Shown here in pieces: positions 21,981 to 63,999 of a DNA stretch of 64,000 nucleotides. The position numbers and the translations under genes were made by a program. This DNA comes from Athripsodes cinereus (lineage: Eukaryota > Arthropoda > Insecta > Trichoptera > Leptoceridae). The stretch lies in contig OX388305.1 in the NCBI GenBank assembly GCA_947579605.1, positions 38,949,542-39,013,541 of the forward strand, written 5' to 3'. How positions within the stretch are numbered: position 1 is the first letter of the stretch; each line of letters starts with the position of its first letter. The notes below the pieces were generated by a model, which was not told the DNA's origin, did no database searches, and saw only the letters and a list, made by a program, of their open reading frames with translations.

Positions 21981-23662
21981 TTATTTGTTCTTTTTTGCCA
22001 TAGGAGGCATTCCACTTGCAGCGGGATGGCCTCTTGGAGGGGGATTGTAGCTATTTGGATTGGCACGACCTCTTGAATTCCCAGGCCAGCAATCAGTTGG
22101 AGGATCTGTGGGGCATTCACAAGGAGGATCGGTAGGAGGATCTGTGGGGCATTCACAAGGAGGATCGGTAGGAGGATCTGTGGGGCAATCAGTAGGAGGA
22201 TCGGTAGGAGGATCTGTGGGGCAATCAGTAGGAGGATCGGTAGGAGGATCGGTAGGAGGATCGGTAGGAGGATCTGTGGGGCAATCAGTAGGAGGATCGG
22301 TAGGAGGATCGGTAGGAGGATCGGTAGGAGGATCGGTAGGAGGATCGGTAGGAGGATCGGTAGGGCCGCAAGCTTTTGTGTTTATTCCCTGCAAAAAATA
22401 AAACAATTTTTTTTTATCATATTGAGAATACAGGAACACAACTTATTTAATGACAGTTTTTTTCCCATTACACATATTCTAACATAACACAATTAAATAC
22501 TTCTATATAAAATTCCTCATCACAATTTCGAGTAATTTTTTCTTATCTCAAAATCTTAAAAAACCTGCGAAACCATTACGCGAATAATATTCTTAGCCGG
22601 CTTTTTTATCGGTAACAAACCACATGCAATGGCCTTGAGATGAAGTTTTGATACTTTTCAAAATATATAATGGAAAATCAAAAAACATTTAAATTTACAT
22701 TTCTTTACAACTTGTTTTAATTATTTCGATGCTTTTACAAATTTTTCGAAAGATCTTTTTTCTTATTTTTATTTATTTATTCTTTTAGCACATCATCATA
22801 TAACAGGGTTAACAAAACAATATAAAATTTAATAAAAACTAGGACGACATGCAGTGGCGAGATTATCACTATAAAGTGATTTCTTCCATCTTTCAAAACT
22901 TCCCACGACACGATAGAAAAATGACCGCCCGAAAAAAAATAGAGAGTAAAAAGTAATAATACTTGTTTGAATGTCTCAACATATCAGGCAAAATATAAAA
23001 AAAATCAAAAACATCGTGCAACGATTTTTTCCATTTTCTGGCTGCTTACAAATGGATTCATACTGGAGCAACTGGCTGTCCTGAAATGGATAACTTCACA
23101 TGAACGCCATATTGCTTTATCCTTTCATACTTCTTATACATTCGTGCAATTTTTCATACACGCACGTCGATTTTTCTTAATCAACACACACCTGTCATTG
23201 AAAATTTATCCACGTGATCAAGCCACGTAGTTCCTGGACGCCCGTGCTTTCTCTCACCCCCTACTTTTATAATAAAATAATTACATAACAAATACATTAT
23301 TAGGAATACTTTAATTATGTTCGATTTTAAAAAGGAAATATTTTTTGGTATATTTTGTGAGATTTCAGAGATAATAATTGGGTCATATCAAAAGGTTTTT
23401 CAACGTCATCCATGATGTCATAAAGACCATGGTCCTAGCGGATTGGACATTTAAATAAAACGTGATCTGGAATCTCTGCATTTAATATTGGATATACCAA
23501 ACCTGTTAAGGTAAGAAGTCACAATACAGAGACCTAAACCCATTCTAGAAATTGGTAAAATACCAGTAAATAATGAAATGAGGACATTTTGATAAAAATA
23601 AATAAAAATATTCTTACCTGTAACAGGAATAAAACCAAAAACACCCCAACGAACTTCTTCAT
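21981..23662 (-). CDS. Gene A: secreted Pro/Thr/Asp repeat protein, two exons
   Basis: Exon 1 is 23618-23662 (45 nt, MKKFVGVFLVLFLLQ, a signal peptide), ending CAG before donor GTAAGA. Exon 2 is 21981-22388, preceded by a T-rich tract and TTTTTTGCAG. Both junctions are phase 0. The mature protein (about 135 aa) starts GINTKACG, then consists of PTDP units (12 bp each) with Cys placed periodically (PTDC, PTDPPCEC), and ends DCWPGNSRGRANPNS...GMPPMAKKNK. Stop TAA is at 21981, overlapping an AATAAA signal. No known domain is recognised. The composition suggests an extracellular structural or glue protein; function is inferred from similarity of plan to gene B and of motif to gene C. The exon model is strong; expression is unproven. 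Confidence 0.75.
22785..22905 (-). repeat. LINE 3' fragment (pair of 51.1 kb)
   Basis: Within the gene A intron. The minus strand matches 51090-51205 (GATCACTTTATAGTGATAATC, CTCGCCACTGCAT, CGTCCTAGTTTTT, ATATTGTTTTGTT), continuing into GATGATGTGCTAAAAGAATAAA. Probably the 3' end of a non-LTR element. Confidence 0.6.
23098..23265 (-). pseudogene. RTE-type LINE C-terminal fragment (copy 2)
   Basis: Within the gene A intron. The minus strand matches the end of the RTE family (GRPGTTWLDHV, then the MRHCMT-like segment in decayed form). Frameshifts are present. Confidence 0.6.
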
Positions 23663-23760
23663 GATTACGTTTTATGAAAATGTTTCAACTGTTATTCCTT
23701 GCTGATTGTCCCCAAGCTGGTAGACCACCTCAGGCTGTAAAGAATTTGCTGAATACGACC

Positions 23761-23770
23761 TTTATATATA
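23761..23770 (-). promoter_or_regulatory. TATA box of gene A
   Basis: TATATATAAA on the minus strand, 99 bp upstream of the gene A ATG. With the usual ~30-bp spacing, transcription would start near 23740, giving an 80-nt 5' leader without an earlier ATG. A forkhead-type TGTTTAT core lies further upstream at 23843-23849 on the plus strand. Confidence 0.55.
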
Positions 23771-24103
23771 TAATTATCGACACAAAAATATTTAAAATAA
23801 AATTGTCGAATATTAGAAAATATATTAATCGGCTTATATATATGTTTATGATAATGTTCTCAAAATAATCCAAAATTATATTATAAGACACCTTAGGTCA
23901 ATCTATGGGCAGTTTTCAGCCTGAAAATATTAGGGAAATGTTTAAATGGGCATCCGAAAAAACAAATGGTCGACTAACATTGAACTGACTGCAATACCTA
24001 TTATTTATGATACTACAAAAAACATTGCAAAAAATGGGTGACAGATTGACGTATTGCAAAAAATGGGTGACAGCTTTATTGTGCGAGCGACTGAAAATAC
24101 ATT

Positions 24104-24196
24104 AATGGGGTGTTCACATTAAATTTGGCGAATATAGCCAGGCGAAATTTAAAATATATCGCCAGGCGAAAAAACAAAATTCGCCGGACACCCATT
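24104..24196. mobile_element. Possible short MITE
   Basis: A 93-bp stretch with ends AATGGGGTGTTC on the left and, from the right end inward, CAATGGGTGTCCGGCG, enclosing repeated GGCGAA/TTCGCC motifs. It lies directly upstream of an RTE fragment. No clear target duplication was found, so this is tentative. Confidence 0.3.
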
Positions 24197-24221
24197 GATC
24201 GTCACACCTGTTCACGCAATC

Positions 24222-24377
24222 CACAGATATAGAAACGATCTGTCAGATGCGCCTGCATGGCGCGGGAGAGCATGCATGAGGAATTGTATGACAGTGACGG
24301 AAGCGAAAGATGTATGCAAGGATAGAAGGAAGTGGCGCTCGATCCTTTCTGCCTACCCCGCGAGGGAAGCGGAGTGA
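24222..24377 (+). pseudogene. RTE-type LINE C-terminal fragment (copy 3)
   Basis: The plus frame reads GRACMRNCMTVTEAKDVC then RRKWRSILSAYPAREAE and TGA, the very end of the family ORF2, followed by TGGTATGTATGTATG, a short tetranucleotide tail. The same tail follows copy 7 at 45150-45165. Confidence 0.75.
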
Positions 24378-24499
24378 TGGTATGTATGTATGTATTTGTT
24401 TGCGTTGTTTGACATGACAGAATCGGCCTTCACAGTCACCTTAGATGGCACCGTCGGCAGGATGCTCGATTAAATTCAGTCTCTCAATAATACCCGGCA

Positions 24500-25300: not shown

Positions 25301-26170
25301 ATGTAGGTGAGAAGCTAACGCCGTAGATAATGTTGGATTAATGAATAACTAATATAATCTCGATTATGTTGGGTAACAAAAACTAGTTTGAAATTTTATT
25401 TCTTCAAGTGTGACGAATCTGAAAACTTTGCAAAACAATCGAATGTAATGTTTCTTTTAATATTTGCTTTATTATGCCTACATACTGTACATTTATTTAT
25501 GATTATTATAACAGATGCATTAATATGCTAATGCATTAAATAATAACCTGTCTACAAAAATCGTCTATGTTTCGGATTCAATCTAAACGTAAATCAGTAG
25601 ACTTAAGTTTTACTGGCCGATATTGTTTCCCTGTCCATCCACAATGCATCATGACTTCTTCTACAAGTGGAATGCCCAGCAATTTATTGCAGTAAATAAA
25701 TATGCATGTTTTCCTCTCCATGTGCACGTACAGCACGAATTATTTGATTTTTTTGACCGATTCAAAATAGTGCATTGTTCAAATTTATTTAATTTATGTT
25801 ATTTTAATAAGTGTGTGTGTAAGGGTGTTTTTATTTGTATTGATCTCTCTTCTTTTTGCTTTTAATTGTAATGAATTTTTTGACACAATTGGATGTCGGG
25901 AACTGGATTTTACTTACTAGAAATGTAGATGTTTATCATATTTTGGACCACTCTAGATTAATTATTCCAGTTGATCACACTCACCGATAGTCAACCTATT
26001 TGAATAGGTATTAAAAAGGTAGGTATGTTGTATATGGTACACATCCATAATATGGACACACATATTATGTGAACTTCCTAAAGGAGTACATGACACAGAG
26101 TTTTGACGCTTATGAATCGACTCAATGCTTGGTTAATCATGCAATTAAGTCCTAACTGAAAAAAACATTT
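25301..26170. other. Intergenic, no gene seen
   Basis: AT-rich. A plus-strand frame at 25623-25865 (80 codons) has no recognisable features and is not called. Confidence 0.4.
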
Positions 26171-26174
26171 CACC

Positions 26175-26290
26175 TTTCTTTCCGTCACAGTCATACAATT
26201 CCTCATTAATGCTCTCCTGTTCAATGTGCTCGACTCGTGACCGTCCTGTGGAATCTGGTTTATATGATCTTGCCATTTGATCCTCGTTCC
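26175..26290 (-). pseudogene. RTE-type LINE C-terminal fragment (copy 4)
   Basis: The minus strand aligns to the 45-kb copy over the DNA for WQDHLNQFLQDG through MRNCMTVT, but the frame is shifted, so it translates as an unrelated Ser/Arg/Glu-rich peptide. Best recognised at nucleotide level. Confidence 0.65.
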
Positions 26291-27770: not shown

Positions 27771-27774
27771 CTCA

Positions 27775-27990
27775 TTCCCTCACGCCGTATCCCAAGTGGG
27801 GTAGGCAGAGAGAACGGAACGCCATATAGATTGGTCCTTACATACTTCTTTCGCTTCTTCTACAGTCATACAATGTCTCATGCATGCACGTCGATTTCTC
27901 TTACTCAAAACACGACCATCCTTAAGAATTTGATCTACATGATCAAGCCATGTAGTTCTCGGACGCCCGCGCTTCCTCACACTCACATTG
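27775..27990 (-). pseudogene. RTE-type LINE C-terminal fragment (copy 5)
   Basis: The minus frame reads VRKRGRPRTTWLDHVDQIL, RRACMRHCMTVEEAKEVC and SIWRSVLSAYPTWDTA. It differs from copy 7 in several residues shared with copies 8 and 9, suggesting at least two subfamilies. Confidence 0.75.
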
Positions 27991-34395: not shown

Positions 34396-34655
34396 TTTTT
34401 TATCCCGTGGAGCACCCGGTAAAGAATTGGTCTCCCGCTCTTCTCTGTAAGTTTTCGAGTGTCCTGTAAAAGGCAGGTGTTCGAAAAAATTAAGACATTT
34501 TACATCTACATTCAGCGATGAGGTTTGCCACCCATCCTGAATGTCTTGATTTTATATTGGCACGGAGAGGACAGCTTGCATGTTTCTTACATGCAGCTGG
34601 TCTGCTGGCTACCCCACTTGTGGGATATGCCGTGATGGTATAGTAGTAGTAGTAG
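34396..34655 (+). repeat. Retroposon-like repeat in the gene B 3' region
   Basis: Starts CCCGTGGAGCACCCGG and ends GGGATATGCCGTGATGG followed by a TAG repeat. It matches 58197-58454 closely over its whole length. It lies between the gene B stop codon and the nearest downstream AATAAA, so it may be transcribed as part of the gene B 3' UTR. Confidence 0.7.
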
Positions 34656-34677
34656 TAGGATTTTTTTTTAAATAATT

Positions 34678-37600
34678 CTAATTTTTTCTAAGATTACCCA
34701 AAAATTTTCCAGTGTTGTTCATTATTTTTGCTTTTGACTCCTTACTATTTGATTTTGAATTTTTGCCCTTTGATGAATTGTGAGATGGATTGTTGGATTT
34801 CGAATTACATGCTGAATTCGATTTTTCATTAGATAACTTACACATTTGGCGGATTGATTCCACAGATTTGCTAGTTGATTTACTTTTAGAAGAGAATTTT
34901 CTAGATGCATTAGAATTATTACTGTTGGAAACGGAGCTAGTAGATGCATTTGATTTGTTGTTCGAAGACGCTGAATTGTTAGATGCATTAGAATTATTGC
35001 TATTAGAGGCGGAGTTGCTAGATGCTTTTGATTTTTTGTTTACAGAAGCTGAATTATTGCTAGAAGCGGAACTGCTTGATGCATTAGATTTACTGTTAAT
35101 AGACGCTGAATTATTGGATGCATTTGAGTTATTATTCGAAACAGAGTTATTTGATTTGACGTTTGCAGAAGCTGAATTATTTTTGGAAGCAGAGTTGCTT
35201 GCATTCGATTTATTGTTCGAAGACGCTGAACTATTAGATGCGTTAGAATTGTTACTGTTAGAGACGGAGTTGCTAGATGCATTAGATTTATTGTTCGAAG
35301 ACGCTGAATTATTAGACGCGTTAAAATTATTACTATTGGAGGCGGAATTGCTAGATCCATTTGATTTGTTGTTTACAGAAGCTGAATTATTGCTAGAAGC
35401 GGAACTGCTTGATGCATTAGATTTACTGTTTATAGACGCTGAATTATTGGATGCATTTGAGTTATTATTCAAAACAGAGTTATTTGATTTGATGTTTGCA
35501 GAAGCTGAATTATTTTTGGAAGCAGAGTTGCTTGATGCATTCGATTTATTGTTTGAAGACGCTGAACTATTAGAGGCGGAGTTGCTAACTGCATTGGATT
35601 TGTTGTTTACAGAAGCTGAATTACTACTAGAAGCGGAACTGCTTGATGCTTTAGATTTACTGTTTATAAACGCTGAATTATTGGATGCATTTGAGCTTTT
35701 ATTAGAAACAAAGTTATTTGATTTGACGTTTGCAGTAGCTGAATTATTTTTGGAAGCAGAGTTGCTTGATGCATTCGATTTATTGTCTGAAGACGCTGAA
35801 CTATTTGATGCGTTAGAATTGTTATTACTCGAGGCGGAGTTGCTTGATGCATTGGATTTGTTGTTTACAGAAGATGAATTATTACTAGAAGCGGAACTGC
35901 TTGATGCATTAGACTTACTGTTAATAGACGCTGAATTATTGGATGAATTTGAGTTATTATTGGAAACAGAGTAATTTGATTTGACGTTTGCAGAAGCTGA
36001 ATTATTGTTGGAAGCAGAGTTACAAGATGCATTTGATTTATTGTTCGAAGATCCTGAATTATAAGATGCATTAGAATTGTTACTGTTAGAGGCGGAGTTG
36101 CTAGTTGCATTAGATTTATTGTTCGAAGACGCTGAATTCTTAGACGCGTTAGAATTATTACTATTGAAGGCGGATTTGCTAGATGCATTTGATTTGTTGT
36201 TTTGAGACGCTGAGTTATAAGATGCATTAGAATTATTATTGTTGGAAACAGAGCTTTTCGATGCATTCGATTTATTGTTCGAAGACGTTGAATTATTAGA
36301 TGCGCTAGAATTATAACTATTTGAGGCGGAGTTGTTAGATGCATTTGATTTGTTGTTATTGACTGCTGAATTATTAGATGCATTAGAATTATTACTATTG
36401 GAAGTCAAAATAGAGGAAAAACCTGATATAACATCTGCATTTGAACAAGAGGAAGAGTTTGATGAAGCGTCTGGAATCAAACTTGATAAAGAGCTGGATG
36501 AAGCATCTAAATTACAAGTAGAGGGATAACTTGAAGAGGTATCTGCACTTGAACTAGAAGATGAGTTTGACGAAGCATCTGAGTTCGAACTAGATGAAGA
36601 GCTGGATGAAGCTTCTGAATTAGAAAACGAGGAAGAACTTGAAGAGGTATCTGCACATGAAATAGATGAAGAGCTTAATGAAGCATCTGCACTTGAACTA
36701 AAAGATGAGTTTGACGAAGCATCTGAGTTCGAACTAGTTGGAGAGCTGGATGAAGCATCTGAATCAGAAGTAGAGGAAGTACTTGAAGAAGCATCTGCAC
36801 ATGAACTAGATGAAGAGTTTGATGAAGCATCTGCACCTGAACTAGAACACGAACTCAATGATGTACCTGCATTTGAGCTAGAGGAAGAACTTGAAGCGGC
36901 ATCTGAAGTTGAACTAGATGAAGAGCTGGATGAAGCATCTGAATCAGAAGTAGAGGAAGTACTTGAATAGGCATCTGCACTTGAACAAGATGAAGAGCTG
37001 GATGAAGCATCTGCATTTGAACTAGAAGATGAGTTTGACGAAGCATCTGTGTTCGAACTAGAAGAGCTGCATGAAGCTTCTGAATAAGAAGTAGAGGAAG
37101 AACCGGCACCTGCACTTTTACCAGATGAAGAGTTTGATGAAGCATCTGCACTTGAACTAAAAGATGAGTTTGACGAAGCATCTGAGTTCGAACTAGTTGA
37201 AGAACTGGATGAAGCATCTGAATCAGAAGTAGAGGAAGTACTTGAAGAGGCATCTGCACATGAACTAGATGAAGAGTTTGATGAAGCATCTGCACTTGAA
37301 CTAGAAGATGAGTTTGACGAAGCATCTGAATTTGAACTAGATGATGAACTTGACAAAGCATCTGAAGTTGAACTAGATGAAGAGCTGGATGAAGCTTCTG
37401 AATTAGAAGTAGAGGAAGAACTTGGAGAGGTATCTGCACTTGAACTAGAAGATGAGTTTGACGAAGCATCTGAGTTCGAACTAGATGAAGAGCTGGATGA
37501 AGCATCTGAATTAGAAGTAGAGGAAGTACTTGAAGAGGCATCTGCACATGAACTTGATGAAGAGTTTGATGAAGCATCTGCACTTGAACTAGAAGATGAG

Positions 37601-40600
37601 TTTGACGAAGCATCTGAATTTGAACTAGATGATGAGTTTGACGAAGCATCTGAGTTCGAACTAGTCGAAGAGCTGGATGAAGCATCTGAATTAGAAGTAG
37701 AGGAAGTACTTGAAGAGGCATCTGCACTTGAACTAGATGAAGAATTTGATGAAGCATCTGCACTTGAACTAGAAGACGAGCTCAATGATGTACCTGCATT
37801 TGAGCTAGAGGAAGAACTTGAAGGGGCATCTGATATTGAACTAGATGAAGAGTTTGATGAAGCATCTGCACATGAACTAGAAGATGAGTTTGACGAAGTA
37901 TCTGAGTTCGAAGTAGATGATGAACTTGACAAAGCATCTGAAGTTGAACTAGATGAAGAGCTGGATGAAGCATCTGAAGTAGAAGTAGAGGAAGTACTTG
38001 AAGAGGCATCTGCACATGAACTTGATGAAGAGTTTGATGAAGCATCTGCACTTGGACTAGAAGATGAGTTTGACGAAGCATCTGAATTTGAACTAGATGA
38101 TGAGTTTGACGAAGCATCTGAGTTCGAACTAGTTGAAGAGCTGGATGAAGCATCTGAATTAGAAGTAGAGGAAGTACTTGAAGAGGCATCTGCACATGAA
38201 CTAGATGAAGAGTTTGATGAAGCATCTGACTTTGAACTAGATGATGAACTTGACAAAGCATCTGAAGTTGAACTAGATGAAGAGCTGGATGAAGCTTCTG
38301 AATTAGAAGTAGAGGAAGAACTTGGAGAGGTATCTGCACTTGAACGAGAAGATGAGTTTGACGAAGCATCTGAATTTGAACTAGATGATGAGTTTGACGA
38401 AGCATCTGAGTTCGAACTAGTCGAAGAGCTGGATGAAGCATCTGAATTAGAAGTAGAGGAAGTACTTGAAGAGGCATCTGCACATGAACTAGATGAAGAG
38501 TTTGATGAAGCATCTGAATTTGAACTTGGTGATGAACTTGACAAAGCATCTGACGTGGAACTAGATGAAGAGCTGGATGAAGCTTCTGAATTAGAAGTAG
38601 AGGAAGAACTGGTACCTGCACTTGAACTACATGAAGAGCTTGATGAAGCATCTGCACTTGAACTAGATGATGAACTTGACAAATCATCTGAAGTTGAACT
38701 AGATGAAGAGCTGGATGAAGCTTCTGAATTAGAAATAGAGGAAGAACTTGGAGAGGTATCTGCACTTGAACTAGAAGATGAGTTTGACGAAGCATCTGAG
38801 TTCGAACTAGATGAAGAGCTGGATGAAGCATCTGAATTAGAAGTAGAGGAAGTACTTGAAGAGGCATCTGCACATGAACTTGATGAAGGGTTTGATGAAG
38901 CATCTGCACTTGAGCTAGAAGATGAGTTTGACGAAGCATCTGAATTTGAACTAGATGATGAGTTTGACGAAGCATCTGAGTTCGAACTAGTCGAAGAGCT
39001 GGATGAAGCATCTGAATTAGAAGTAGAGGAAGTACTTGAAGAGGCATCTGCACTTGAACTAGATAAAGAGTTTGATGAAGCATCTGCACTTGAACTAGAA
39101 GATGAGTTTGACGAAGCATCTGAATTTGAACTAGATGATGAGTTTGACGAAGCATCTGAGTTCGAACTAGTCGAAGAGCTGGATGAAGCATCTGAATTAG
39201 AAGTAGAGGAAGAACTGGTACCTGCACTTGAACTACATGAAGAGCTTGATGAAGCATCTGCACTTGAACTAGATGATGAACTTGACAAATCATCTGAAGT
39301 TGAACTAGATGAAGAGCTGGATGAAGCTTCTGAATTAGAAGTAGGGGAAGAACTTGGAGAGGTATCTGCACATGAACTAGAAGATGAGTTTGACGAAACA
39401 TCTGAGTTCGAACTAGTTGAAGAGCTGGATGAAGCATCTGAATTAGAAGTAGAGGAAGTACTTGAAGAGGCATCTGCACATGAACTTGATGAAGAGTTTG
39501 ATGAAGCATCTGCACTTGAACTAGAAGATGAGTTTGACGAAGCATTTGAATTTGAACTAGATGATGAGTTTGACGAAGCATCTGAATTTGAACTAGATGA
39601 AGAGTTTGACGAAGCATCTGAGTTCGAACTAGTTGAAGAGCTGGATGAAGCATCTGAATTAGAAGTAGAGGAAGTACTTGAAGAGGCATCTGCACATGAA
39701 CTTGATGAAGAGTTTGATGAAGCATCTGCACTTGAACTAGAAGATGAGTTTGACGAAGCATCTGAATTTGAACTAGATGATGAGTTTGACGAAGCATCTG
39801 AGTTCGAACTAGTTGAAGAGCTGGATGAAGCATCTGAATTAGAAGTAGAGGAAGTACTTGAGGAGGCATCTGCACATGAACTTGATGAAGGGTTTGATAA
39901 AGCATCTGAATTTGAACTTGGTGATGAACTTGACAAAGCATCTGACGTGGAACTAGATGAAGAGCTGGATGAAGCTTCTGAATTAGAAGTAGAGGAAGAA
40001 CTGGTACCTGCACTTGAACTACATGAAGAGCTTGATGAAGCATCTGCACTTGAACTAGATGATGAACTTGACAAATCATCTGAAGTTGAACTAGATGAAG
40101 AGCTGGATGAAGCTTCTGAATTAGAAGTAGGGGAAGAACTTGGAGAGGTATCTGCACATGAACTAGAAGATGAGTTTGACGAAACATCTGAGTTCGAACT
40201 AGTTGAAGAGCTGGATGAAGCATCTGAATTAGAAGTAGAGGAAGTACTTGAAGAGGCATCTGCACATGAACTTGATGAAGAGTTTGATGAAGCATCTGCA
40301 CTTGAACTAGAAGATGAGTTTGACGAAGCATTTGAATTTGAACTAGATGATGAGTTTGACGAAGCATCTGAATTTGAACTAGATGAAGAGTTTGACGAAG
40401 CATCTGAGTTCGAACTAGTTGAAGAGCTGGATGAAGCATCTGAATTAGAAGTAGAGGAAGTACTTGAAGAGGCATCTGCACATGAACTTGATGAAGAGTT
40501 TGATGAAGCATCTGCACTTGAACTAGAAGATGAGTTTGACGAAGCATCTGAATTTGAACTAGATGATGAGTTTGACGAAGCATCTGAGTTCGAACTAGTT

Positions 40601-43600
40601 GAAGAGCTGGATGAAGCATCTGAATTAGAAGTAGAGGAAGTACTTGAGGAGGCATCTGCACATGAACTTGATGAAGGGTTTGATGAAGCATCTGCACTTG
40701 AGCTAGAAGATGAGTTTGACGAAGCATCTGAATTTGAACTAGATGATGAGTTTGACGAAGCATCTGAGTTCGAACTAGTCGAAGAGCTGGATGAAGCATC
40801 TGAATTAGAAGTAGAGGAAGTACTTGAAGAGGCATCTGCACTTGAACTAGATAAAGAGTTTGATGAAGCATCTGCACTTGAACTAGAAGATGAGTTTGAC
40901 GAAGCATCTGAATTTGAACTAGATGATGAGTTTGACGAAGCATCTGAGTTCGAACTAGTCGAAGAGCTGGATGAAGCATCTGAATTAGAAGTAGAGGAAG
41001 TACTTGAAGAGGCATCTGCACATGAACTAGATGAAGAGTTTGATGAAGCATCTGAATTTGAACTTGGTGATGAACTTGACAAAGCATCTGACGTGGAACT
41101 AGATGAAGAGCTGGATGAAGCTTCTGAATTAGAAGTAGAGGAAGAACTGGTACCTGCACTTGAACTACATGAAGAGCTTGATGAAGCATCTGCACTTGAA
41201 CTAGATGATGAACTTGACAAATCATCTGAAGTTGAACTAGATGAAGAGCTGGATGAAGCTTCTGAATTAGAAGTAGAGGAAGAACTTGGAGAGGTATCTG
41301 CACTTGAACTAGAAGATGAGTTTGACAAAGTATCTGAGTTCGAACTAGATGAAGAGCTGGATGAAGCATCTGAATTAGAAGTAGAGGAAGAACTTGAAGA
41401 GGCATCTGCACATGAACTAGATAAAGAGTTTGACGAAACATCTGAATTTGAACTAGATGATGAGTTTGACGAAGCATCTGAATTTGAACTAGATGATGAG
41501 TTTGACGAAGCATCTGAGTTCGAACTAGTTGAAGAGCTGGATGAAGCATCTGAATTAGAAGTAGAGGAAGTACTTGAAGAGGCATCTGACGTGGAACTAG
41601 ATGAAGAGCTGGATGAAGCTTCTGAATTAGAAGTAGAGGAAGAACTGGTACCTGCACTTGAACTACATGAAGAGCTTGATGAAGCATCTGCACTTGAACT
41701 AGATGATGAACTTGACAAATCATCTGAAGTTGAACTAGATGAAGAGCTGGATGAAGCTTCTGAATTAGAAGTAGGGGAAGAACTTGGAGAGGTATCTGCA
41801 CATGAACTAGAAGATGAGTTTGACGAAACATCTGAGTTCGAACTAGTTGAAGAGCTGGATGAAGCATCTGAATTAGAAGTAGAGGAAGTACTTGAAGAGG
41901 CATCTGCACATGAACTTGATGAAGAGTTTGATGAAGCATCTGCACTTGAACTAGAAGATGAGTTTGACGAAGCATCTGAATTTGAACTAGATGATGAGTT
42001 TGTCGAAGCATCTGAGTTCGAACTAGTTGAAGAGCTGGATGAAGCATCTGAATTAGAAGCAGAGGAAGTACTTGAAGAGGCATCTGCACATGAACTAGAT
42101 GAAGAGTTTGATGAAGCATCTGACTTTGAACTAGATGATGAACTTGACAAAGTATCTGAAGTTGAACTAGATGAAGAGCTGGATGAAGCTTCTGAATTAG
42201 AAGTAGAAGGCGAACTTGAAGAGGTATCTGCACTTGAACTAGAAGATGAGTTTGACAAAGCATCTGAGTTCGAACTAGATGAAGAGCTGGATGAAGCTTC
42301 TGAATTAGAAGTAGAGGAAGTACTTGAAGAGGCATCTGCACATGAACTAGATGATGAGTTTGATGAAGCATCTGCACTTGAACTAGAAGATGAGTTTGAC
42401 GAAGCATCTGAATTTGAACTAGATGAAGAGCTGGATGAAGCTTCTGAATTAGAAGTAGAGGAAGAACTTGGAGAGGTATCTGCACTTGAACTAGAAGATG
42501 AGTTTGACGAAGCATCTGAGTTCGAACTAGATGAAGAGCTGGATGAAGCATCTGAATAAGAAGTAGAGAAAGTACTTGAAGAGGCATCTGCACATGAACT
42601 TGATGAAGAGTTTGATGAAGCATCTGCACTTGAACTAGAAGATGAGTTTGACGAAGCATCTGAATTTGAACTAGATGATGAGTTTGACGAAGCATCTGAG
42701 TTCGAACTAGTTGAAGAGCTGGATGAAGCTTCTGAATTATAAGTAGAGGAAGTACTTGAAGAGGCATCTGCACATGAACTAGATGAAGAGTTTGATGAAG
42801 CATCTGACTTTGAACTAGATGATGAACTTGACAAAGCATCTGAAGGTGAACTAGATGAAGAGCTGGATGAAGCTTCTGAATTAGAAGTAGTGGAAGAACT
42901 TGGAGAGGTATCTGCACTTGAACTAGAAGATGAGTTTGACAAAGCATCTGAGTTCGAACTAGATGAAGCGCTGGATGAAGCTTCTGAATTATAAGTAGAG
43001 GAAGTACTTGAAGAGGCATCTGCACATGAACTAGATGAAGAGTTTGATGAAGCATCTGACTTTGAACTAGATGATGAACTTGACAAAGCATCTGAAGGTG
43101 AACTAGATGAAGACCTGGATGAAGCTTCTGAATTAGAAGTAGAGGAAGAACTTGGAGAGGTATCTGCACTTGAACTAGAAGATGAGTTTGACAAAGCATC
43201 TGAGTTCGAACTAGATGAAGAGCTGGATGAAGCTTCTGAATTAGAAGTAGAGGAAGTACTTGAAGAGGCATCTGCACATGAACTAGATGATGAGTTTGAT
43301 GAAGCATCTGCACTTGAACTAGAAGATGAGTTTGACGAAGCATCTGAGTTCGAACTAGATGAAGAGCTGGATGAAGCATCTGAATCAGAAGTAGAGGAAG
43401 TACTTGAAGAGGCATCTGCACATGAACTTGATGAAGAGTTTGATGAAGCATCTGCACTTGAACTAGAAGATAAGTTTGACGAAGCATCTGAGTTCGAACT
43501 AGATGAAGAGCTAGATGAAGCATCTGAATTAGAAGTAGAGGAAGAACTTGAAGATGTATCTGCACATGAACTAGATGAAGAGTTTGATGAAGTCTTAGTT

Positions 43601-46600
43601 GAATAGGTATCCTTAGATTTATTTTTGCCCATGGAATCTGACGATTTAGATTTATTCTTATTGTTTTTGTTTTTATTTGTATTGCATTTGGAACTACTAT
43701 TTGAATTGTTATTTGCAGATTTTGAGTCATTAGCTATAGTTTCTGCACTACTCTTGCTGGAACGTGTATTCTTCGATTTATTGTTGCTTACAGATTCTGA
43801 TAATTCTGATTTATTGTTGGTTTCTTTGGTTTTTTTGTTATTTTCTTTGGCTTTGGATGTATAATTTGATTTCTCTTTTAAAGATGTTGAATCTTTGTCT
43901 TTGATTTCTGCACTTTTCTCACTTAAAGTTATATCCTTACATTTATTTCTGCTTGTAGATTCTGACGATTCTGATTTATTGTTGTTGTCTTTGCCTTTTT
44001 TGTTATTTTCATTGAATTTGGATGTACAATTTGATTTCTTCATTAAATATTTTGAATCTTTGTCCTTGATTTCTGCATTATTAGTGATAGAGCAGCTATC
44101 TTCTGATTTCTTTTTGTCTTGAAATTCTGATGAAGTGTTTTTTTTTTTAATGATTTTATCTTTGTTCTCACCCTCATTTGAATTGGATGATGTTTTCGTT
44201 TTCTGATTGGACGATTGTAATTTATTATTATTTATAATTTCACTTTTACCTTTGAAGCTTTCTTTTTTGACTTCACTAGTTTCGTAAGAATTTGATGTAT
44301 CTGATTTTTTAGTAGTTTTTGATCGATGATTTTTTTCGTTTGATGTTGATTTCAATTTATTTTTACAAACTTCAACTGAACTTGATGTTTTGGAATATTT
44401 CGCTGAAATATCTTTGTTAGTAGTAGTATTACTATCTGGCTTCTTAGAAGCATTCGTAAATATTTTATTAGGTGCTTTGCTATTACTTTCTTTGGAAGAA
44501 ATAGTTTCTTCTGAGTTTTTTGACGGACTGCTGATTGATTTTAATGATTTAAAATTTGTTTTAAATATTCCTGATGTCGATTTGATTTCTTTTGATGAGC
44601 TCTTTGAGTTCGAATTTCTGTTTGATATCAATTTTGGTTGTGGAAGGCTGCGTCCTGCTTGTATTGTTTGACAAGGTAAACCATTGAACTCCTGAGAAAA
44701 ATAATGTTTTTTTTTTATATATATACAAGTGTTAAATTGAACGATGCTTTTAGCCACATGCCAATATGGCAAAAATGTTAGTGCACAAAACCATTCTGAT
44801 CCAATACTTAAATATACAAAAAAGACATTCACATGGTTGAAAAATTGTTATTTTCTCTAATTCACAATGCACTGCGATGATATATGCTGCGAGTAGATTA
44901 ATAAGAAAATTTGCTTTCACATGAAAAAATGCTGGTGCACAACTACGTTCTGATGCCAACACGTAAGCAAGTGAAACTTGGACATGGTTGAAGAAAACAA
45001 AAATTGAATAAATGCTATGGAGATGCAATCGCTGAGAAGAATGTTTTAAAACTATTGTGTTAAGAAATGAAGAAAGAGAATATTACGAAAGTGAGCGGAT
45101 GCAAGAGGAGAATTGTGAACAAGATACAATTGTTTAGATAATATTTAAACATACATACATACCATCACGCCGCTTCCCTCGCGGGGTAGGCAGAAAGGAT
45201 CGAGCGCCACTTCCTTCTATCCTTGCATACATCTTTCGTTTCCGTCACTGTCATACAATTCCTCATGCATGCTCTCCTGTTCAATGTGCTCAACACCTGA
45301 CCGTCCTGTAGGAATTGATTTAAATGATCTTGCCATTTAATCCTAGGACGCCCACATCTCCGAGCACCATTCCTCTCAGCCAAATATATCTTCTTAGTCA
45401 TTCTATCCTCATTCATTCTTTCCACGTGCCCGAACCATCTTAACTTATTTACATTCATCCTTGTTATTACACCCACTTTCATTCCACATTCCTTTCGTAT
45501 ATCACTGTTACGCACACGATCTCTCAGACTTTTACCACACATCCTTCTCAACGATCTCATTTCTACTGCATTAATGCCACTTTCATCTTTCTTTAACCAT
45601 GTCCACGTCTCACTTGCATACATAAGTGTTGGCACTAAGATAGCAGAGTGCACCAACCTTTTAGCTGTGGTAGATATGTTTCTATTTGCAATTATTGGTC
45701 GGATTGCACCATTTACCTTATTGCCAGCAACTTTTCTCCTTTCAATATCGCTTTCACACTTCCCATCTCTCGTGAACAAACTACCTAATGATTGACAACG
45801 AAGTGTTAGAGCAAGTTGAAGAATATTTAAACAATTTTATCTTATTCACAATACTCCTCTTGCACATATAATGTGGAACGAATGGTTGATGCAAAGATGA
45901 TATAAAAAATGTATGTAGGTATCTTAAAAAAAAATATTTTTGTTTTGGTTTATGTAATTATATTGTTTAATTTTTAATGTTTTAATCGTTTAATTAGGGT
46001 TTTGTTTTTTGTTTTTTTTTTATATTATATTGGTTGATTTTTGTAAAAACCTTACTTTTGTAAAAAGGCTATTTGCTGTCAATGATAATAAAATTAAATT
46101 AAATTAAAAATCGTGGCTTGACAGCGTAGATCAAATTCTGGAGGACGGGCGTAGGTCCATAAAAAGAAATTGTAGTAAGCGTACGAGAAATTGCATACGT
46201 ACGATGCCGGAGAGTCGTCATGTCGACTACCCAGTTCCATAACTTATTTCACAAGTGTGGTAGCCAGCAGACCAGCTGCATGCAAAAAATATGCGATTTT
46301 CAATTTTATAAATATATTAACATAAAATATCATTACACACTATACTATACTATACCCTCACGCCGTGTCCCAGATGGGGTAGGCAGAGAGAACGGAACGA
46401 CATGTCGATCTATCCTTACATACTTCTTTCGTTTTCTCTACATTCATCCAGTTTCTCATACATGCACGCCGATTCCTCTTACTTAACACGCGACCGTCCT
46501 TGAGAATTTAATCCACGTGGTTAAGCCACGTAGTTCTTGGACGTCCGCGCTTTCTCACACCCTCTCTTTCAGATAAATACACCCTCTTCGCCAATCTTTA

Positions 46601-46801
46601 TTTGACTTTAATTGTTTCTTTGATTGACTGTATTTGAAATTATTAAATTATGATTAATTATATGAAATGTATATATGACGAGTCCAAGTGCCTCCATAAT
46701 AGGGGCCTAGGGACAATAAGAAACAATAAAACAATATAGGTATAAAAAAAACTCACCTCAATGGCCATCAAAAATAAAAACAATAAAAAAATTAACTTCA
46801 T
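34678..46801 (-). CDS. Gene B: giant serine-rich secreted repeat protein (sericin-like)
   Basis: Exon 1 is 46757-46801 (45 nt, MKLIFLLFLFLMAIE, signal peptide), donor GTGAGT. Exon 2 is 34678-44691 after TTTTTCTCAG. Both are phase 0, giving about 3352 aa. The mature N-terminus EFNGLPCQTIQAGRS leads a ~360-residue Ser/Lys/Asn-rich region. It is followed by about 200 tandem 12-residue units of the type SSSSSxxDASSx (x often NS, SA, CA), acidic and nearly Lys-free. Next comes a ~500-residue Asn/Ser/Ala/Lys repeat region and a basic 75-residue tail with two Cys (ESIRQMCKLSNEKSNSAC). No stop breaks the 10-kb exon. Composition and design match lepidopteran sericins (silk glue made in the middle silk gland). 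Alternatives are a salivary or eggshell mucin. Identity as sericin-like is inference. Confidence 0.8.
34905..36395 (-). repeat. Asn/Ser/Ala/Lys repeat array of gene B
   Basis: Coding repeat translating as SASSNNKSNASS, NSASNSNNSNASN and variants, with longer composite units containing SASANVKSNNSVSNNNSN and SASINSKSNASS. Units are less regular than in the 12-mer array. Lys recurs in almost every unit, so this block is basic. Confidence 0.8.
36480..43600 (-). repeat. 36-bp (12-residue) Ser/Asp/Ala array of gene B
   Basis: About 200 units of 36 bp. Main types: SSSSSNSDASSN, SSSSSSADASSN, SSSSSCADASSS, TSSTSNSDASSS, SSTSSNSDASSN and SCSSSAGTSSSS. Asp or Glu falls once per unit and Cys about every five units. 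Higher-order blocks are duplicated: GGTACC-marked units recur at about 38610, 39217, 40003, 41149 and 41648, and the ~680 bp from 39200 recurs almost unchanged 786 bp further on. Since 36 is divisible by 3, antisense frames stay open by chance. Confidence 0.9.
44945..45130 (+). pseudogene. RTE-type LINE fragment (copy 6), intronic
   Basis: At nucleotide level the plus strand matches the YASETWTW through VSGCKR part of the family (GTGAAACTTGGACATGG, GTGAGCGGATGCAAGAG) with many indels. Confidence 0.6.
45165..45800 (-). pseudogene. RTE-type LINE C-terminal copy (copy 7), longest open
   Basis: 204 open codons on the minus strand: FTRDGKCESDIERRKVAGN, LMYASETWTWLKKDES, LRWFGHVERMNEDRMTKK, CGRPRIKWQDHLNQFLQ, CMRNCMTVTETKDVC, WRSILSAYPAREAA. 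It is 5'-truncated (no RT motifs) and ends with a TGGTATG tetranucleotide tail. It is the best copy here for defining the family. It lies in the gene B intron in gene orientation, so it is probably transcribed and spliced out with it. Confidence 0.85.
46110..46235 (+). pseudogene. RTE-type LINE fragment (copy 8), intronic
   Basis: The plus frame reads WLDSVDQILEDGRRSIKRN, then CIRTMPESRHVDYP in decayed form. It matches the WLDHVDQIL subfamily of copy 5. Confidence 0.6.
46355..46600 (-). pseudogene. RTE-type LINE fragment (copy 9), intronic
   Basis: The minus strand matches the region from VYLSERE through GRPRTTWLNHV, RRACMRNWMNVE and SYPIWDTA, with a frame break near 46510. Confidence 0.65.
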
Positions 46802-46944
46802 TTTATATTTTGTAACGTAAGGTCTTATTTTTATCCAATATTGATAATGATTTGCGATGTCAAAAAAGGGAAAAAAATTAAACACTTTAACACAGTTTGA
46901 AGTGAAACTGAGTCACCGTTATTTTTTTTAAACCACGTTTGCCC

Positions 46945-46985
46945 TTTTTATACAAAATGAAGAATAAATAAGCCTATATTAGCAT
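46945..46985 (-). promoter_or_regulatory. Gene B promoter: TATA box and POU-like site
   Basis: TATAAAAA on the minus strand at 46945-46952, 150 bp upstream of the ATG; transcription should start near 46920. ATGCTAAT, an octamer-type POU motif, lies at 46978-46985, and a match to the forkhead/SGF-1 consensus (ATGTTTGTTT on the plus strand) at 47115-47124. Sericin promoters of Bombyx are known to use SGF-1 and the POU factor SGF-3. The match here is by motif only. Confidence 0.5.
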
Positions 46986-51595: not shown

Positions 51596-52165
51596 ATCCC
51601 CTTACGTCACGTCCCTCACGGGGTAGGCAAAGAGAACGGAACGCCATATAGAGCTGTCCCCACATACTGCATTCATCTCCTCTACATTAATAGGTGATAT
51701 AGCCACATATTTCTTGGACGCCCGTGCTTCCTCACACCCCTTATTTCAGACAACTATATCCTCTTTGTCATCTTATCCCTTTCCATTCGTTCCACTTGAC
51801 CAAACCATCTTAATTTAATTACACGTATTCTATCCACAACACTTCTCTTGCATCCACTCATTTTCCTTACATCCTCATTCCTCACTCTATCACATAAGGT
51901 TTTATAACCATTCTCCTCAGCGATCGCAGTATTTATCTCTACAGCATTTATTCTAATTTCATCCATCTTCAACCATGTCCAAGTTTCGCTTGTATACATG
52001 AGTGATGGTACCTGAATGGTATTGTGCACTAGCACTTTCGCCATGTTCGACATATTGCCATTTCTGACAATCTGTCAAAGTGCACCGGCCACATTTCTTC
52101 TTTCAATATCCCTGTCACATCTTCCATCCCTCGCAAACGAAGTTCCAAAAGAAGTCTCTCTCACA
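51596..52165 (-). pseudogene. RTE-type LINE C-terminal copy (copy 10)
   Basis: The minus strand reads ARDGRCDRDIERRNVAG, MYTSETWTWLKMDEIRIN, SGCKRSVVDRIRVIKLRWFG, RKHGRPRNMWLYHL, with a frame break and an internal indel. The mariner at 52171 begins right at its upstream end; decayed sequence at 53101-53150 may be the rest of this copy on the far side. Confidence 0.7.
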
Positions 52166-57915: not shown

Positions 57916-58196
57916 ATGTCGCATAATAAATTGTGGCGCATAGTGTTGGATGACAGTTTATCTCTAAAAGATTTACCTTTTTTCTGTACTTTTTATATGG
58001 TAGGCTGGAAAATGTTACTGCAACAAGTCCGCCATTTGACAGAACACTGTTTTTTATTAATTCTTATGTGTAGTATGTGTAAGTTTGGTATATTATGTCT
58101 CGTCAAGGTTATTACTAAAAATTGGGGGAAGATGTACTGGACCTTCTCGTGGTCTTCCTCGTGAGTAGCGCAATAAAAGAGATAAATTAGAAATTT

Positions 58197-58454
58197 TTCC
58201 CGTGGAGCACCCGGTAAAGAATTGGTCTCCCACTTTTCTGCGTAAGTTTTCGAGTGTCCTGTAAAAGGCAGGTGTTCGAAAAAATTAAGACATTTAACAT
58301 CTTAAATTCAGCGATGAGGCTTGCCACCCATCCTGAATGTCTTGGTTTTATATTGGCACGAAGAGGACGGTTTGCATGTTCCTTACATGCAGCTGATCTG
58401 CTGGCTACCCCACTTGTGGGATATGCCGTGATGGTATAGGTATAGGTAGGTAGG
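58197..58454 (+). mobile_element. Retroposon with 14-bp target duplication
   Basis: Full copy of the repeat seen at 34396-34655. It is flanked by the direct repeat TAAATTAGAAATTT at 58183-58196 and 58455-58468 and ends in a GGTATA/TAGG simple-repeat tail, the marks of target-primed reverse transcription. No open frame; length about 258 bp. A diverged piece lies at 60385-60490 and another at 46240-46300. No Pol III boxes were recognised, so it may be a 3' end of an unknown LINE rather than a SINE. Confidence 0.75.
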
Positions 58455-58639
58455 TAAATTAGAAATTTGAACCAAAAGAAGAAAGTGAAGCGATCAATGA
58501 GAAGAAACTGAAAAAAAAAATTAAACAAACCAGCAATTCGAGGCGGCCGAACATCGAAAGATCTCACGACCAAACCGGTGAAAAAAAACTCCTTTTTAGG
58601 ACCAAAACAACGAACACAGTACTGAGAAAAAATAAATTG

Positions 58640-59090
58640 TAAGTATGAAAAATAAAATGGTATGGTCATGTGGCCAGGAGACCACCTGAGTATGTAGGCA
58701 ATTAAGTTCAATGTATCGAGGTTACCGGCAAGAGACCAAGAGGAAAGCCAAAGCGCAGATGGCCTGCAGGGCTACTTTTGACAAAACTAAACACGATCTT
58801 AATCTAGTCTTGATCTTAATCATACGACGCACGAAGTGACTATTGGCCAAAAATACACGCAAACCGATCGCGCGTTAGCGGTAGCGCGGTATGATCAAGA
58901 TCAAGACTAGATTAAGATCGTGTTTAGTTTTGTCAAGAGTAACCCTGCAGAAGTAGTGAGACAAGACGTGCGGAACTGCGATGTTTCCCATGAGGATGCG
59001 CTCGACAGAACCAAGTGGAGAAATGAGACAAAAAAGGTAGACTCCCCACCATGTGGGACCAATAATTGCCCAAGAAGAAGAAGAAGAAGT
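58640..59090 (+). pseudogene. LINE ORF2 C-terminal fragment split by a MITE
   Basis: Before the MITE the plus strand encodes WYGHVARRPPEYVGN-like and GKRPRGKPKRRW-like residues (with frameshifts). After it the frame continues VVRQDVRNCDVSHEDALDRTKWRNE and ends near PPCGTN. This is the end of a non-LTR ORF2, interrupted at 58770-58944. Confidence 0.65.
58770..58944. mobile_element. 175-bp palindromic MITE
   Basis: Inverted repeats of roughly 55 bp: GGCTACTTTTGACAAAACTA on the left and, from the right end inward, GGTTACTCTTGACAAAACTA, both continuing AACACGATCTTAATCTAGTC. The flank CTGCAG is present on both sides (58764-58769, 58945-58950) and is probably the target duplication. The middle is GC-richer (CGATCGCGCGTTAGCGGTAG). 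A partial copy is at 8105-8162. Confidence 0.8.
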
Positions 59091-61715: not shown

Positions 61716-61717
61716 AT

Positions 61718-61812
<95 letters not shown>

Positions 61813-61818
61813 TTAGTT

Positions 61819-61858
<40 letters not shown>

Positions 61859-61859
61859 T
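61716..61859. repeat. (TTTA)n microsatellite, about 140 bp
   Basis: Nearly uninterrupted TTTA/ATTT repeats with one break at about 61814-61822. A (TTA)n tract follows at 61929-61957. Confidence 0.95.
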
Positions 61860-61926
61860 GTATTAGTAAAATAAATGTATTGTGTTATTGTTCGATTATT
61901 GTAAAATGATATTGTGTTTAATAAAC

Positions 61927-61957
<31 letters not shown>

Positions 61958-61982
61958 TATTTTTTTTTTTTTTTTTTTTAAA

Positions 61983-62147: not shown

Positions 62148-62148
62148 C

Positions 62149-62151
62149 TAT

Positions 62152-62238
<87 letters not shown>

Positions 62239-62239
62239 T
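62149..62239. repeat. (TTTA)n microsatellite next to SINE head
   Basis: About 91 bp of pure TTTA, starting directly at the SINE 5' end. The SINE either inserted into a TTTA tract or seeded it; the tract at 61716-61859 lies on its other side. Confidence 0.95.
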
Positions 62240-63440
62240 CTATTCACGGCCTGGGCCTTTTACATATAAATATTAACATAGGTATAATGTCATAATGAAA
62301 AAAAATATAGGGTAATTATAGTAATCAACTAATCATTTAGTTTAATCATTTACTTTAACCGGTTATTTAAAGATACCTATCACAATAATTTATTCCTTCA
62401 TTAGGGACTAAAATATTTTTATTATACAAAAGAAACACAAATGTTTAAGTACTTAAGTGCTTCTATAAAAAGACGCCAGTCAAATAATAATAAAAATATT
62501 TATTTATTTAAGTACATATACAATTTTCGCTTTTACATGTTGACAAATTTAATAAATTATAACAACAATAATAACAAAAATACAGGTAATAAAAGCAATA
62601 AAAAAATAATAATAAAAACAATTATGTATGAAAAAAAGAGGAAGCAACAAATCAAAATGGCTACTTGGAAACTAGTCGCGTATAGATTTTAAGAATGTTG
62701 CCTTGTGTTTGTGTAGCGCTTAGAAAATGTACACGATTATTCCGCAATGGAAACTAGTGCAGTATGTTTTTTGCACAAGTTTTAGTGTACGTTATTGGAA
62801 AATATACACGATAAGAGCGTAGTAATCATGTATAGTGTCTTAAAATATTTATGCTTATTACTACTTGAAACTATACGCGAGCAGTCCCAAACTGTGCGTA
62901 ATGGCATTGTATACTTTCAAAATACGCCACGCTGCAATATTAAATGTTCTACTTTTTATTAATATATGTGTCCATAAGTACATTGTTGCTTGCTTGTGTC
63001 TTTTTCTTCTTTTTTTGCTTTATTTTTATTTCTATTATTACTGTTGATATGTATGTAGGTATATGTCTGTTTATTTTTTTAATAACCGAGTTAGTTGGAA
63101 GATATTATATATATTTACTTTTAATAAATTCTTTAATCTTTAATATCGCATTTTAGCGATAAACTCGCCATCTGTACATTGATTTGTAAATCTGATATTT
63201 TTTATGTTACTGTTTTAAATTGTATTATTGTAAACAATGTACAGTGAAGAATAAAACACAAAAATAAATAAATAAATAATGCTGTTTGATTGACACGAAA
63301 ATATTTATGATTATAACATTTTTGGAAAATGAATCAAGAGAACATTGCCGAGTGGTACCTCATTCTGTTCTACTATTTACACATTTGGATCTAAAATAGT
63401 ATTTTTTAACAATATATTTGTACTTTCTGGGAAGATAAAA
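62240..63440. other. Intergenic downstream of gene C, AT-rich
   Basis: No gene. At 62665-62880 a loose motif (GGAAACTAGT, GTATA, ACACGAT) recurs four times. On the minus strand this is the region downstream of gene C; forward TTTATT (minus AATAAA) occurs at about 63070. Confidence 0.4.
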
Positions 63441-63444
63441 TTGC

Positions 63445-63999
63445 CTAATAATATTCACATGGTGGGTCTGTTAAGCACGGTGGATCTGTTGGACATTCAG
63501 TGGTTGTGCATTCTGTAGTCGTGCATTCTGTAGTTGGAGTGCATGTTGTTGTAGTGCATGGTGGCTCGGTTGTGCATTCAGTAGTCGTGCATTCTGTAGT
63601 TGTACACTCGGTAGTTGGAGTGCATGTTGTTGTAGTACATGGTGTTGTTGTTGTGCATGTTGTTGTAGTACATGGTGTAGTGGTGGTACAAGTTGTTGTG
63701 GTACATGTTGGCTTTCTAGTGGTACATTTGGTTGTGGTACATTTTGGTTTTCTAGTGGTACATGTGGTTGTGGTACATTTTGGCTTCTTGGTAGTACATG
63801 TTGTGGTACATTTTGGTTTTTTAGTAGTACATGTAGTGGTGGTACACTTTGGTTTCTTGGTGGTACATGTGGTTGTGGTACATTTTGGTTTACAAGTTGT
63901 CTTGCATTGTGGTTTATGGCAATGATGTCCATGGTGGTTACCGTGGTGCTTATCACTTCCGGCCACAGCTGTAGCATATGCATTAGCATTTGAACCAGC
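63445..63999 (-). CDS. Gene C: Cys/Thr/Lys-rich repeat protein, 3' exon (partial)
   Basis: 184 open codons to TAG at 63445, with the 5' part outside the window. It starts AGSNANAYATAVAGSDKHHG, then a His/Gly segment (KHHGNHHGHHCHKPQC) and CKTTCKPKC. About five 12-residue units CTTTTCTTKKPK follow, then CTTTTP and CTPTTECTTTECTTTEC repeats, ending TECPTDPPCLTDPPCEYY. No ATG start is visible, so exon 1 (perhaps a 15-codon signal exon as in genes A and B) is likely to the right. Even Cys spacing suggests disulfide-linked secreted protein; dense Thr suggests mucin-type O-glycosylation. The closing PTDPPC motif links it to gene A. No domain family recognised; a peritrophic or salivary mucin is an alternative. 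Confidence 0.7.
   Translation of the reverse strand, partial: AGSNANAYATAVAGSDKHHGNHHGHHCHKPQCKTTCKPKCTTTTCTTKKPKCTTTTCTTKKPKCTTTCTTKKPKCTTTTCTTRKPKCTTTKCTTRKPTCTTTTCTTTTPCTTTTCTTTTPCTTTTCTPTTECTTTECTTTECTTEPPCTTTTCTPTTECTTTECTTTECPTDPPCLTDPPCEYY

What the first reader, a model, noticed from the sequence alone, without database searches (positions are those of the whole stretch)
21981..63999. Three collinear secreted repeat-protein genes: a candidate silk (sericin/mucin-like) gene cluster
Genes A, B and C lie on the same strand within 42 kb, separated only by transposon-rich DNA, and all encode low-complexity proteins built from short in-frame repeats with spaced cysteines. Genes A and B have an almost identical plan (TATA box, 45-nt signal exon, phase-0 intron, single repeat exon); A and C share the ECPTDPPC-type motif. 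Known from Lepidoptera: sericins and silk mucins are encoded by genes with a short signal exon and long repetitive exons. Inference: an undescribed silk cluster diverging by repeat replacement from a common two-exon ancestor.
Basis: partly seen in the sequence, partly recalled or inferred. Interest (0 to 1): 0.9.

Follow-up and report, generated by a model that had tools for sequence, protein, structure and literature searches.

The report
Clustered two-exon silk-glue-like repeat genes
A stretch of moth or caddisfly DNA carries three neighbouring genes for repetitive, apparently secreted proteins that resemble the sticky coat proteins of insect silk; it looks like a new example of a known kind of gene cluster, and whether these genes are used in silk has not been shown.

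Summary
Genes A and B are well supported; gene C is only partly visible; the silk reading is likely but unproven. Gene A (minus strand, exons 23662-23618 and 22388-21981) encodes 150 aa of TDPP/Cys repeats. Gene B (exons 46801-46757 and 44691-34678) encodes 3,352 aa, 53.7% Ser. Each has a 45-nt hydrophobic signal-type exon, a phase-0 intron and one repeat exon. At strict settings these are the only such exons in the window. Gene C is cut by the window end (184 codons seen). B has oppositely charged blocks: basic, long acidic core, basic. A and C share a CPTDPP..TDPPCE motif beyond shuffles. A and B show no similarity in 5' or 3' flanks, and their introns share only a dispersed transposon, so the 'common two-exon ancestor' is unsupported. 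The closest plan found in print is the clustered two-exon 'cadhesin' genes of a caddisfly and the sericin-like cluster of a primitive moth; C's composition resembles caddisfly Caz1. The host is probably a moth or a caddisfly; 'moth' is not shown. There are no expression data.

The parts
23618..23662 (-). Gene A exon 1, coding part, 45 nt: MKKFVGVFLVLFLLQ, donor GTAAGA, phase 0
   Evidence: signal character from hydropathy only, no signal-peptide predictor was run
23759..23768 (-). Gene A TATA-like box TATATAAAGG, 106 nt before the ATG
   Evidence: consensus match only
22389..23617 (-). Gene A intron, 1,229 nt, phase 0, holding a fragment of a dispersed non-LTR-type transposon
21981..22388 (-). 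Gene A exon 2: TDPP repeats with Cys; 408 nt including the stop; protein of 150 aa with exon 1 (P 32.0, T 14.7, D 14.0, C 6.0 %)
46757..46801 (-). Gene B exon 1, coding part, 45 nt: MKLIFLLFLFLMAIE, donor GTGAGT, phase 0
46943..46952 (-). Gene B TATA-like box TATAAAAAGG, 151 nt before the ATG
   Evidence: consensus match only
44692..46756 (-). Gene B intron, 2,065 nt, phase 0, holding fragments of the same dispersed transposon family
34678..44691 (-). Gene B exon 2, 10,014 nt including the stop; protein of 3,352 aa with exon 1 (S 53.7, N 12.1, A 9.8 %): basic N-domain (res. 14-382, +37), acidic core of 12-residue period (383-2770, -192), basic 13-residue-period block (2771-3277, +31), basic tail (3278-3352, +15)
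63445..64000 (-). Gene C, 3' part only: 184 codons plus stop, T 42.4, C 15.8, K 9.8, P 9.8 %, ends ECPTDPPCLTDPPCEYY; runs off the window end
   Evidence: no upstream part obtained

Best explanation
The locus is part of a cluster of genes for secreted silk-coat (adhesive) proteins of the short-signal-exon, single-repeat-exon type called cadhesins or pseudofibroins in caddisflies and sericin-like genes in a primitive moth. SHOWN here: the gene models of A and B, their signal-type exons, coding constraint on B, the repeat and charge architecture, and the motif shared by A and C. INFERRED: the proteins are made in the larval silk (labial) gland, stored as a concentrated solution and laid on the fibre. 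B would be the bulk glue: a very long hydrophilic Ser-rich chain, possibly O-glycosylated or phosphorylated (189 SxxD/E sites in the core), whose basic ends bind the acidic core of other chains or compete with divalent ions, so that it condenses and gels on spinning; the 39 core cysteines could lock the network by disulfides. A and C would be smaller Cys-rich Pro/Thr partners. Each gene diversifies by tandem repeat turnover inside one exon.
For: Signal-type exons of equal length and phase in A and B. B: 61% synonymous differences between repeats against 26% expected. Composition of B within the published range of sericin-like proteins (Neomicropteryx Srcl2 S 57.4; Yponomeuta Ser3 S 62.4; caddisfly Caz9 S 47.2). 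C resembles Caz1 (T 32.7, C and K 15.9, P 10.0). [quoted passage not shown] Charge blocks: 0 of 2,000 permutations as segregated. A-C motif: 0 of 500 and 0 of 1,000 shuffles.
Against: No expression or proteomic evidence. No sequence homologue found for A (compositional hits only; none of the 120 listed of 223 has CPTDPP) or for B's N-terminal region. No silk-gland landmark gene or synteny visible in the window. No flank similarity between A and B. The Sericin-1 CxC motif near the C-terminus is absent from B and C; A's two CxC lie inside its repeats. Pure composition also fits other secreted mucin-like proteins. The residue shuffles used for A-C do not keep repeat periodicity, so they overstate significance.
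Confidence: 0.65

Rival explanations
1. The three are secreted low-complexity proteins of another tissue: peritrophic-matrix or gut mucins, eggshell or accessory-gland glue, or salivary proteins not used in silk.
For: Ser-, Thr- or Pro-rich Cys-bearing secreted proteins occur in many tissues (general knowledge). No expression evidence here. No Pfam, NCBIfam or close homologue ties them to silk.
Against: Cluster plus short signal exon plus single giant repeat exon matches published silk-gland gene clusters closely, and no peritrophin or other gut or cuticle domain was found in the pieces scanned.
Confidence: 0.24
2. Some of the three are not working genes: A (short, tandem repeat) or C could be satellite-like repeats that happen to be open, or decayed copies.
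For: For A and C the synonymous-change test is as good on a frame of the other strand; tandem repeats whose period is a multiple of three can stay open by periodicity alone.
Against: A has a strong signal exon, TATA-like box and clean acceptor in register. C's minus frame stays open through a non-repeat stretch to the window end, while the plus-strand ORF in the mirror frame ends at 63925, inside the repeat-bearing part.
Confidence: 0.08
3. A, B and C are paralogues that come from one two-exon silk gene by repeat replacement.
For: A and B share exon length (45 nt) and phase; A and C share CPTDPP..TDPPCE.
Against: Upstream 400 nt of A and B: score 23, reached by 137 of 200 shuffles; 3' flanks reached by 36, 63 and 37 of 200 for A-B, A-C and B-C. 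Signal exons match at only 24 of 45 bases. Intron similarity is one 176-nt transposon stretch that also matches three places outside the two introns, and it lies at different distances from exon 1. This does not exclude an old common origin.
Confidence: 0.2

Closest known systems
Cadhesin (Caz) gene clusters of the caddisfly Limnephilus lunatus (PMC11092239)
   Same: Clustered; mostly two exons, first always short and encoding part of the signal peptide, second long and often repetitive; Ser- or Thr-rich. Caz1 (T 32.7, C and K 15.9, P 10.0) is close in composition to gene C; Caz3A (S 37.5, A 21.7, N 13.6) uses the same three main residues as B.
   Different: B is far larger (about 320 kDa against 18-222 kDa in the table).
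Sericin-like cluster of the primitive moth Neomicropteryx cornuta (PMC11906653)
   Same: Three genes on one contig; Srcl2 and Srcl3 have two exons; hydrophilic, up to 57.4% Ser.
   Different: Srcl1 has 4 exons; Srcl2 and Srcl3 are basic (pI 12.37 and 9.84) and larger; B is acidic overall (pI 4.26). Sequences not compared.
Ditrysian moth sericins (Yponomeuta Ser2, Ser3; Ephestia and Galleria clusters; PMC9684489, PMC9745057)
   Same: Clustered or adjacent; very Ser-rich hydrophilic repeats; Ser3 62.4% Ser, pI 3.78.
   Different: Three or more exons in the Yponomeuta genes; Ser1 has a C-terminal CxC motif that B lacks.
Pseudofibroins of Plectrocnemia conspersa (PMC9432349) and fibroin heavy chain
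   Same: Two exons, very short first exon within the signal peptide, long repeat exon.
   Different: Ser-Ala/Ser-Gly motifs and FibH-like hydropathy in those; B is strongly hydrophilic (GRAVY -0.98).

Membership tests
Two-exon silk adhesive genes (cadhesin / pseudofibroin / sericin-like) | Short first coding exon within the signal peptide, one long repeat exon | tested here: met
   Met for A and B; not visible for C
Two-exon silk adhesive genes (cadhesin / pseudofibroin / sericin-like) | Several such genes clustered | tested here: met
   A, B and the end of C on one strand within 42 kb; C's gene plan unknown
Two-exon silk adhesive genes (cadhesin / pseudofibroin / sericin-like) | Ser- or Thr-rich hydrophilic repeats | tested here: met
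   B S 53.7, GRAVY -0.98; C T 42.4, GRAVY -0.83; A is Pro-rich (32.0) with T 14.7, GRAVY -1.11
Two-exon silk adhesive genes (cadhesin / pseudofibroin / sericin-like) | Silk-gland expression or presence in silk | not testable with these tools
   No RNA or proteome data
Two-exon silk adhesive genes (cadhesin / pseudofibroin / sericin-like) | Sequence homology or synteny with described members | not tested
   Caz and Srcl sequences not available; 12 requests for the window's own genome unanswered; protein search with B found nothing
Sericin 1 | CxC(x) motif near the C-terminus | tested here: not met
   B and the visible C have no CxC; A has two CxC at residues 93 and 105 of 150, inside repeats
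[quoted passage not shown]
   No CxCxC in A, B or visible C (CxC positions); A and B have two coding exons; C's exons unseen
Fibroin heavy chain | Conserved N- and C-terminal domains | tested here: inconclusive
   B's N-terminal region matched nothing at E <= 1 among 7,976 scored candidates of limited length; no alignment to a FibH was run
Zonadhesin-like silk proteins | TIL/EGF-type Cys domains | tested here: not met
   No Pfam domain in A or C except a sub-threshold PT repeat in A, none in the B pieces scanned

The most novel reading that the evidence does not exclude
The locus may be the counterpart, across the moth-caddisfly split, of the cadhesin cluster: an ancestral silk-adhesive cluster from which caddisfly cadhesins and moth sericins both come. 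In it, gene B would be a single-chain triblock glue (basic end, long acidic Ser-rich core, basic end) that condenses with itself by charge pairing, with Cys-rich Pro/Thr partners encoded next door.
Probability: 0.12. Interest if true: 0.65.

Novelty: new member of a known kind. Interest (0 to 1): 0.4.

Why it matters
The passages read leave open whether moth sericins and caddisfly adhesive proteins share an origin: they note alike composition and exon plan without enough conserved sequence. Loci with visible gene order, orientation, exon length and phase could test this by synteny where repeats cannot. Gene B also offers a testable design: a 3,352-residue chain with blocks of net charge +37, -192, +31 and +15 as a candidate self-condensing bioadhesive.

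Tried and rejected
Common ancestry of A and B from flanks: no signal above shuffles; the intron hit is a dispersed transposon. Homologues of A: 223 proteins at E <= 1 among 7,995 scored, 120 listed; none of the 120 has CPTDPP, two have one TDPPC; compositional hits. Homologues of B's first 370 exon-2 residues: none at E <= 1. Pfam: a sub-threshold PT repeat in A (17.8 bits, cut-off 26.2), nothing in C, nothing in three pieces of B. NCBIfam on four pieces: nothing. PDB, gene C only: nothing. Rfam and tRNA scans: nothing. Antisense ORF of 1,823 aa over B: rejected, since its frame has 20 stops over the exon and a lower synonymous share (37% against 61%). Host order: tree of the query plus 79 of the 120 listed Bel-Pao hits (41 left out: 4 named moth proteins under 600 aa and 37 without an organism name); quick method; no caddisfly is among the named rows, so moth versus caddisfly stays open. 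Motif search in papers: 513 papers, 15 listed, all matching only the DNA-like string; inconclusive. Search for sericin with charge-block terms: 205 papers held at least 4 of 6 terms and the 10 listed are mostly general polymer and biomaterial reviews; no claim is made about what is not in print.

Papers seen: PMC11092239 (sections 9 and 13, part 1 of 2 of section 6, passages); PMC11906653 (section 7, passages); PMC9745057 (section 20, passages); PMC9684489, PMC12661448, PMC9432349, PMC12976744 (passages only). Others: search listings or starts of abstracts only.
Full report
WHAT IS THERE. The window holds three long repeat ORFs on the minus strand. Gene A: coding exon 1 23662-23618 (MKKFVGVFLVLFLLQ, donor GTAAGA), intron of 1,229 nt, exon 2 22388-21981, 150 aa. 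Gene B: coding exon 1 46801-46757 (MKLIFLLFLFLMAIE, donor GTGAGT), intron of 2,065 nt, exon 2 44691-34678, 3,352 aa. Both introns are phase 0 and both first coding exons are 45 nt. Gene C: 184 codons before a stop at 63447-63445, cut by the window end. Gaps are 11,015 nt (A-B) and 16,643 nt (B to the visible end of C). No signal-peptide predictor was at hand; 'signal' rests on hydropathy and position.

MORE THAN CHANCE. Neither exon-2 frame has an ATG before its acceptor, so each needs a spliced start. In a scan of both strands for ATG, hydrophobic stretch and donor (exon 30-90 nt), these two are the only hits at donor score >=6. The null, 20 simulated sequences of 128 kb, averages 0.15 at hydropathy >=3 and 0.0 at >=3.4; with K/R near the start 0.3 to 0.0. 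Against this: at hydropathy >=2 without the K/R rule the null is 1.85 (max 4), so there is no excess, and at the loosest setting 91 hits stand against 72.6. Thresholds were set after a first look, so these figures are descriptive. In B, single-base codon differences between units 36 nt apart are 61% synonymous (760 of 1,246) against 26% expected; the other frames give 4-37%, the highest being the plus-strand mirror frame (expected 21%). Repeat pairs are not independent, so no p-value is given. For A and C this test does not choose the strand; A rests on its signal exon and acceptor, C on its open non-repeat stretch.

ARCHITECTURE. B is 53.7% Ser, 12.1% Asn, 9.8% Ala, pI 4.26. Blocks: basic N-domain (residues 14-382, net +37), acidic core (383-2770, 2,388 residues of 12-residue period such as SSNSSSSSSADA, Ser 62.7%, net -192), basic block of 13-residue period (2771-3277, +31), basic tail (+15). 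None of 2,000 permutations of the charge signs is as segregated. The core has 39 Cys, 22 of 38 spacings being multiples of 12, and 189 SxxD/E sites. A is TDPP repeats with Cys; C is CTTTT and TTEC repeats ending ECPTDPPCLTDPPCEYY. The A-C alignment score of 135 is reached by 0 of 500 residue shuffles of C (max 129) and the score of C's last 30 residues (88) by 0 of 1,000 (max 76); such shuffles do not keep periodicity. At DNA level the best A-C match is 18 of 21 bases (E 0.008).

ANCESTRY CLAIM. Upstream 400 nt of A and B: score 23, shuffle mean 24.3, 137 of 200 shuffles as good; nearest 150 nt: 160 of 200. The 3' flanks are also ordinary (36, 63 and 37 of 200). The 45-nt exons match at 24 of 45 bases. 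The introns share one clear hit (176 nt, 77%), a transposon stretch that also matches three places outside these introns. The shared plan is real; homology is not shown.

WHAT IT IS. The closest plan found is not ditrysian sericin (Yponomeuta sericins 3-8 exons, mucins 24-32) but the caddisfly cadhesin group: 15 genes in two clusters on chromosome 12, mostly two-exon, the first exon always short and encoding part of the signal peptide, mostly rich in Ser and Thr (PMC11092239). Caz1 (T 32.7, C and K 15.9, P 10.0) is close in composition to the visible part of C (T 42.4, C 15.8, K 9.8, P 9.8). Plectrocnemia pseudofibroins and Neomicropteryx Srcl2 and Srcl3 are also two-exon; Srcl1 has four. Sericin clusters are known in pyralid moths. 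No sequence of these genes was at hand, so membership by descent is untested.

HOST. The Bel-Pao half at 9.6-11.8 kb has lepidopteran best named hits: all 26 organism-named proteins among the first 28 listed are from moths or butterflies, the best 57% identical over 97%. A quick tree of 80 rows puts it as sister to a Plutella plus Leguminivora pair (SH-aLRT 99), on an end branch of 0.52 against 0.22 and 0.25 for those two. This fits a less-sampled moth lineage or a caddisfly; transposons can also move between species, and no caddisfly is among the named rows.

MECHANISM (inference). Secretion is likely from the signal-type exons. Coat function is by analogy with sericins and cadhesins. Charge pairing of basic ends with an acidic, possibly phosphorylated core, with Ca2+ (as passages of PMC12976744 describe for caddisfly fibroin) and disulfides, is the proposed gelling route; no step of it was tested.

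VERDICT. A real cluster with good gene models for A and B and a partial C. Silk-coat assignment 0.65. New member of a known kind. Interest 0.4, for its bearing on the link between moth sericins and caddisfly adhesives and for B's block design.

Noticed in passing
window 9624-20848 (minus): A Bel-Pao retrotransposon appears split in two: one ORF ends at position 66 of the Peptidase_A17 profile, the other starts at position 57, and a non-LTR element (reverse transcriptase, endonuclease, RNase H) lies between, as if it had inserted there. Not joined.
   Followed up: partly
window about 1945-2274, 23101-23276, 24186-24371, 26165-26284, 27783-27983, 45168-45836, 46361-46597, 51608-52164: C-terminal part of one reverse-transcriptase-type family (YASETWTWLKKDE...) occurs at about eight places, including inside both gene introns.
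   Followed up: partly
window 3913-4872 (minus): ORF of 319 aa with a baculovirus FP domain (PF25298, E 7.5e-13) and a sub-threshold PHD-type match, probably a transposon ORF.
   Followed up: no
window 54651-56630 (plus): Reverse transcriptase ORF of 659 aa (RVT_1, E 4.1e-37) between genes B and C on the opposite strand.
   Followed up: no
window about 34490-34690 and 58190-58770 (minus): A repeated element just downstream of gene B's stop resembles one at 58 kb (alike ORF pieces, 45-nt matches).
   Followed up: no
window 61716-61864 and 62149-62244: Long tetranucleotide microsatellites (ATTT)n and (TATT)n.
   Followed up: no
window 37088-42559 (plus): Antisense ORF of 1,823 aa (DELDEASELE-type) across gene B's repeats, a by-product of the 36-nt period.
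   Followed up: yes
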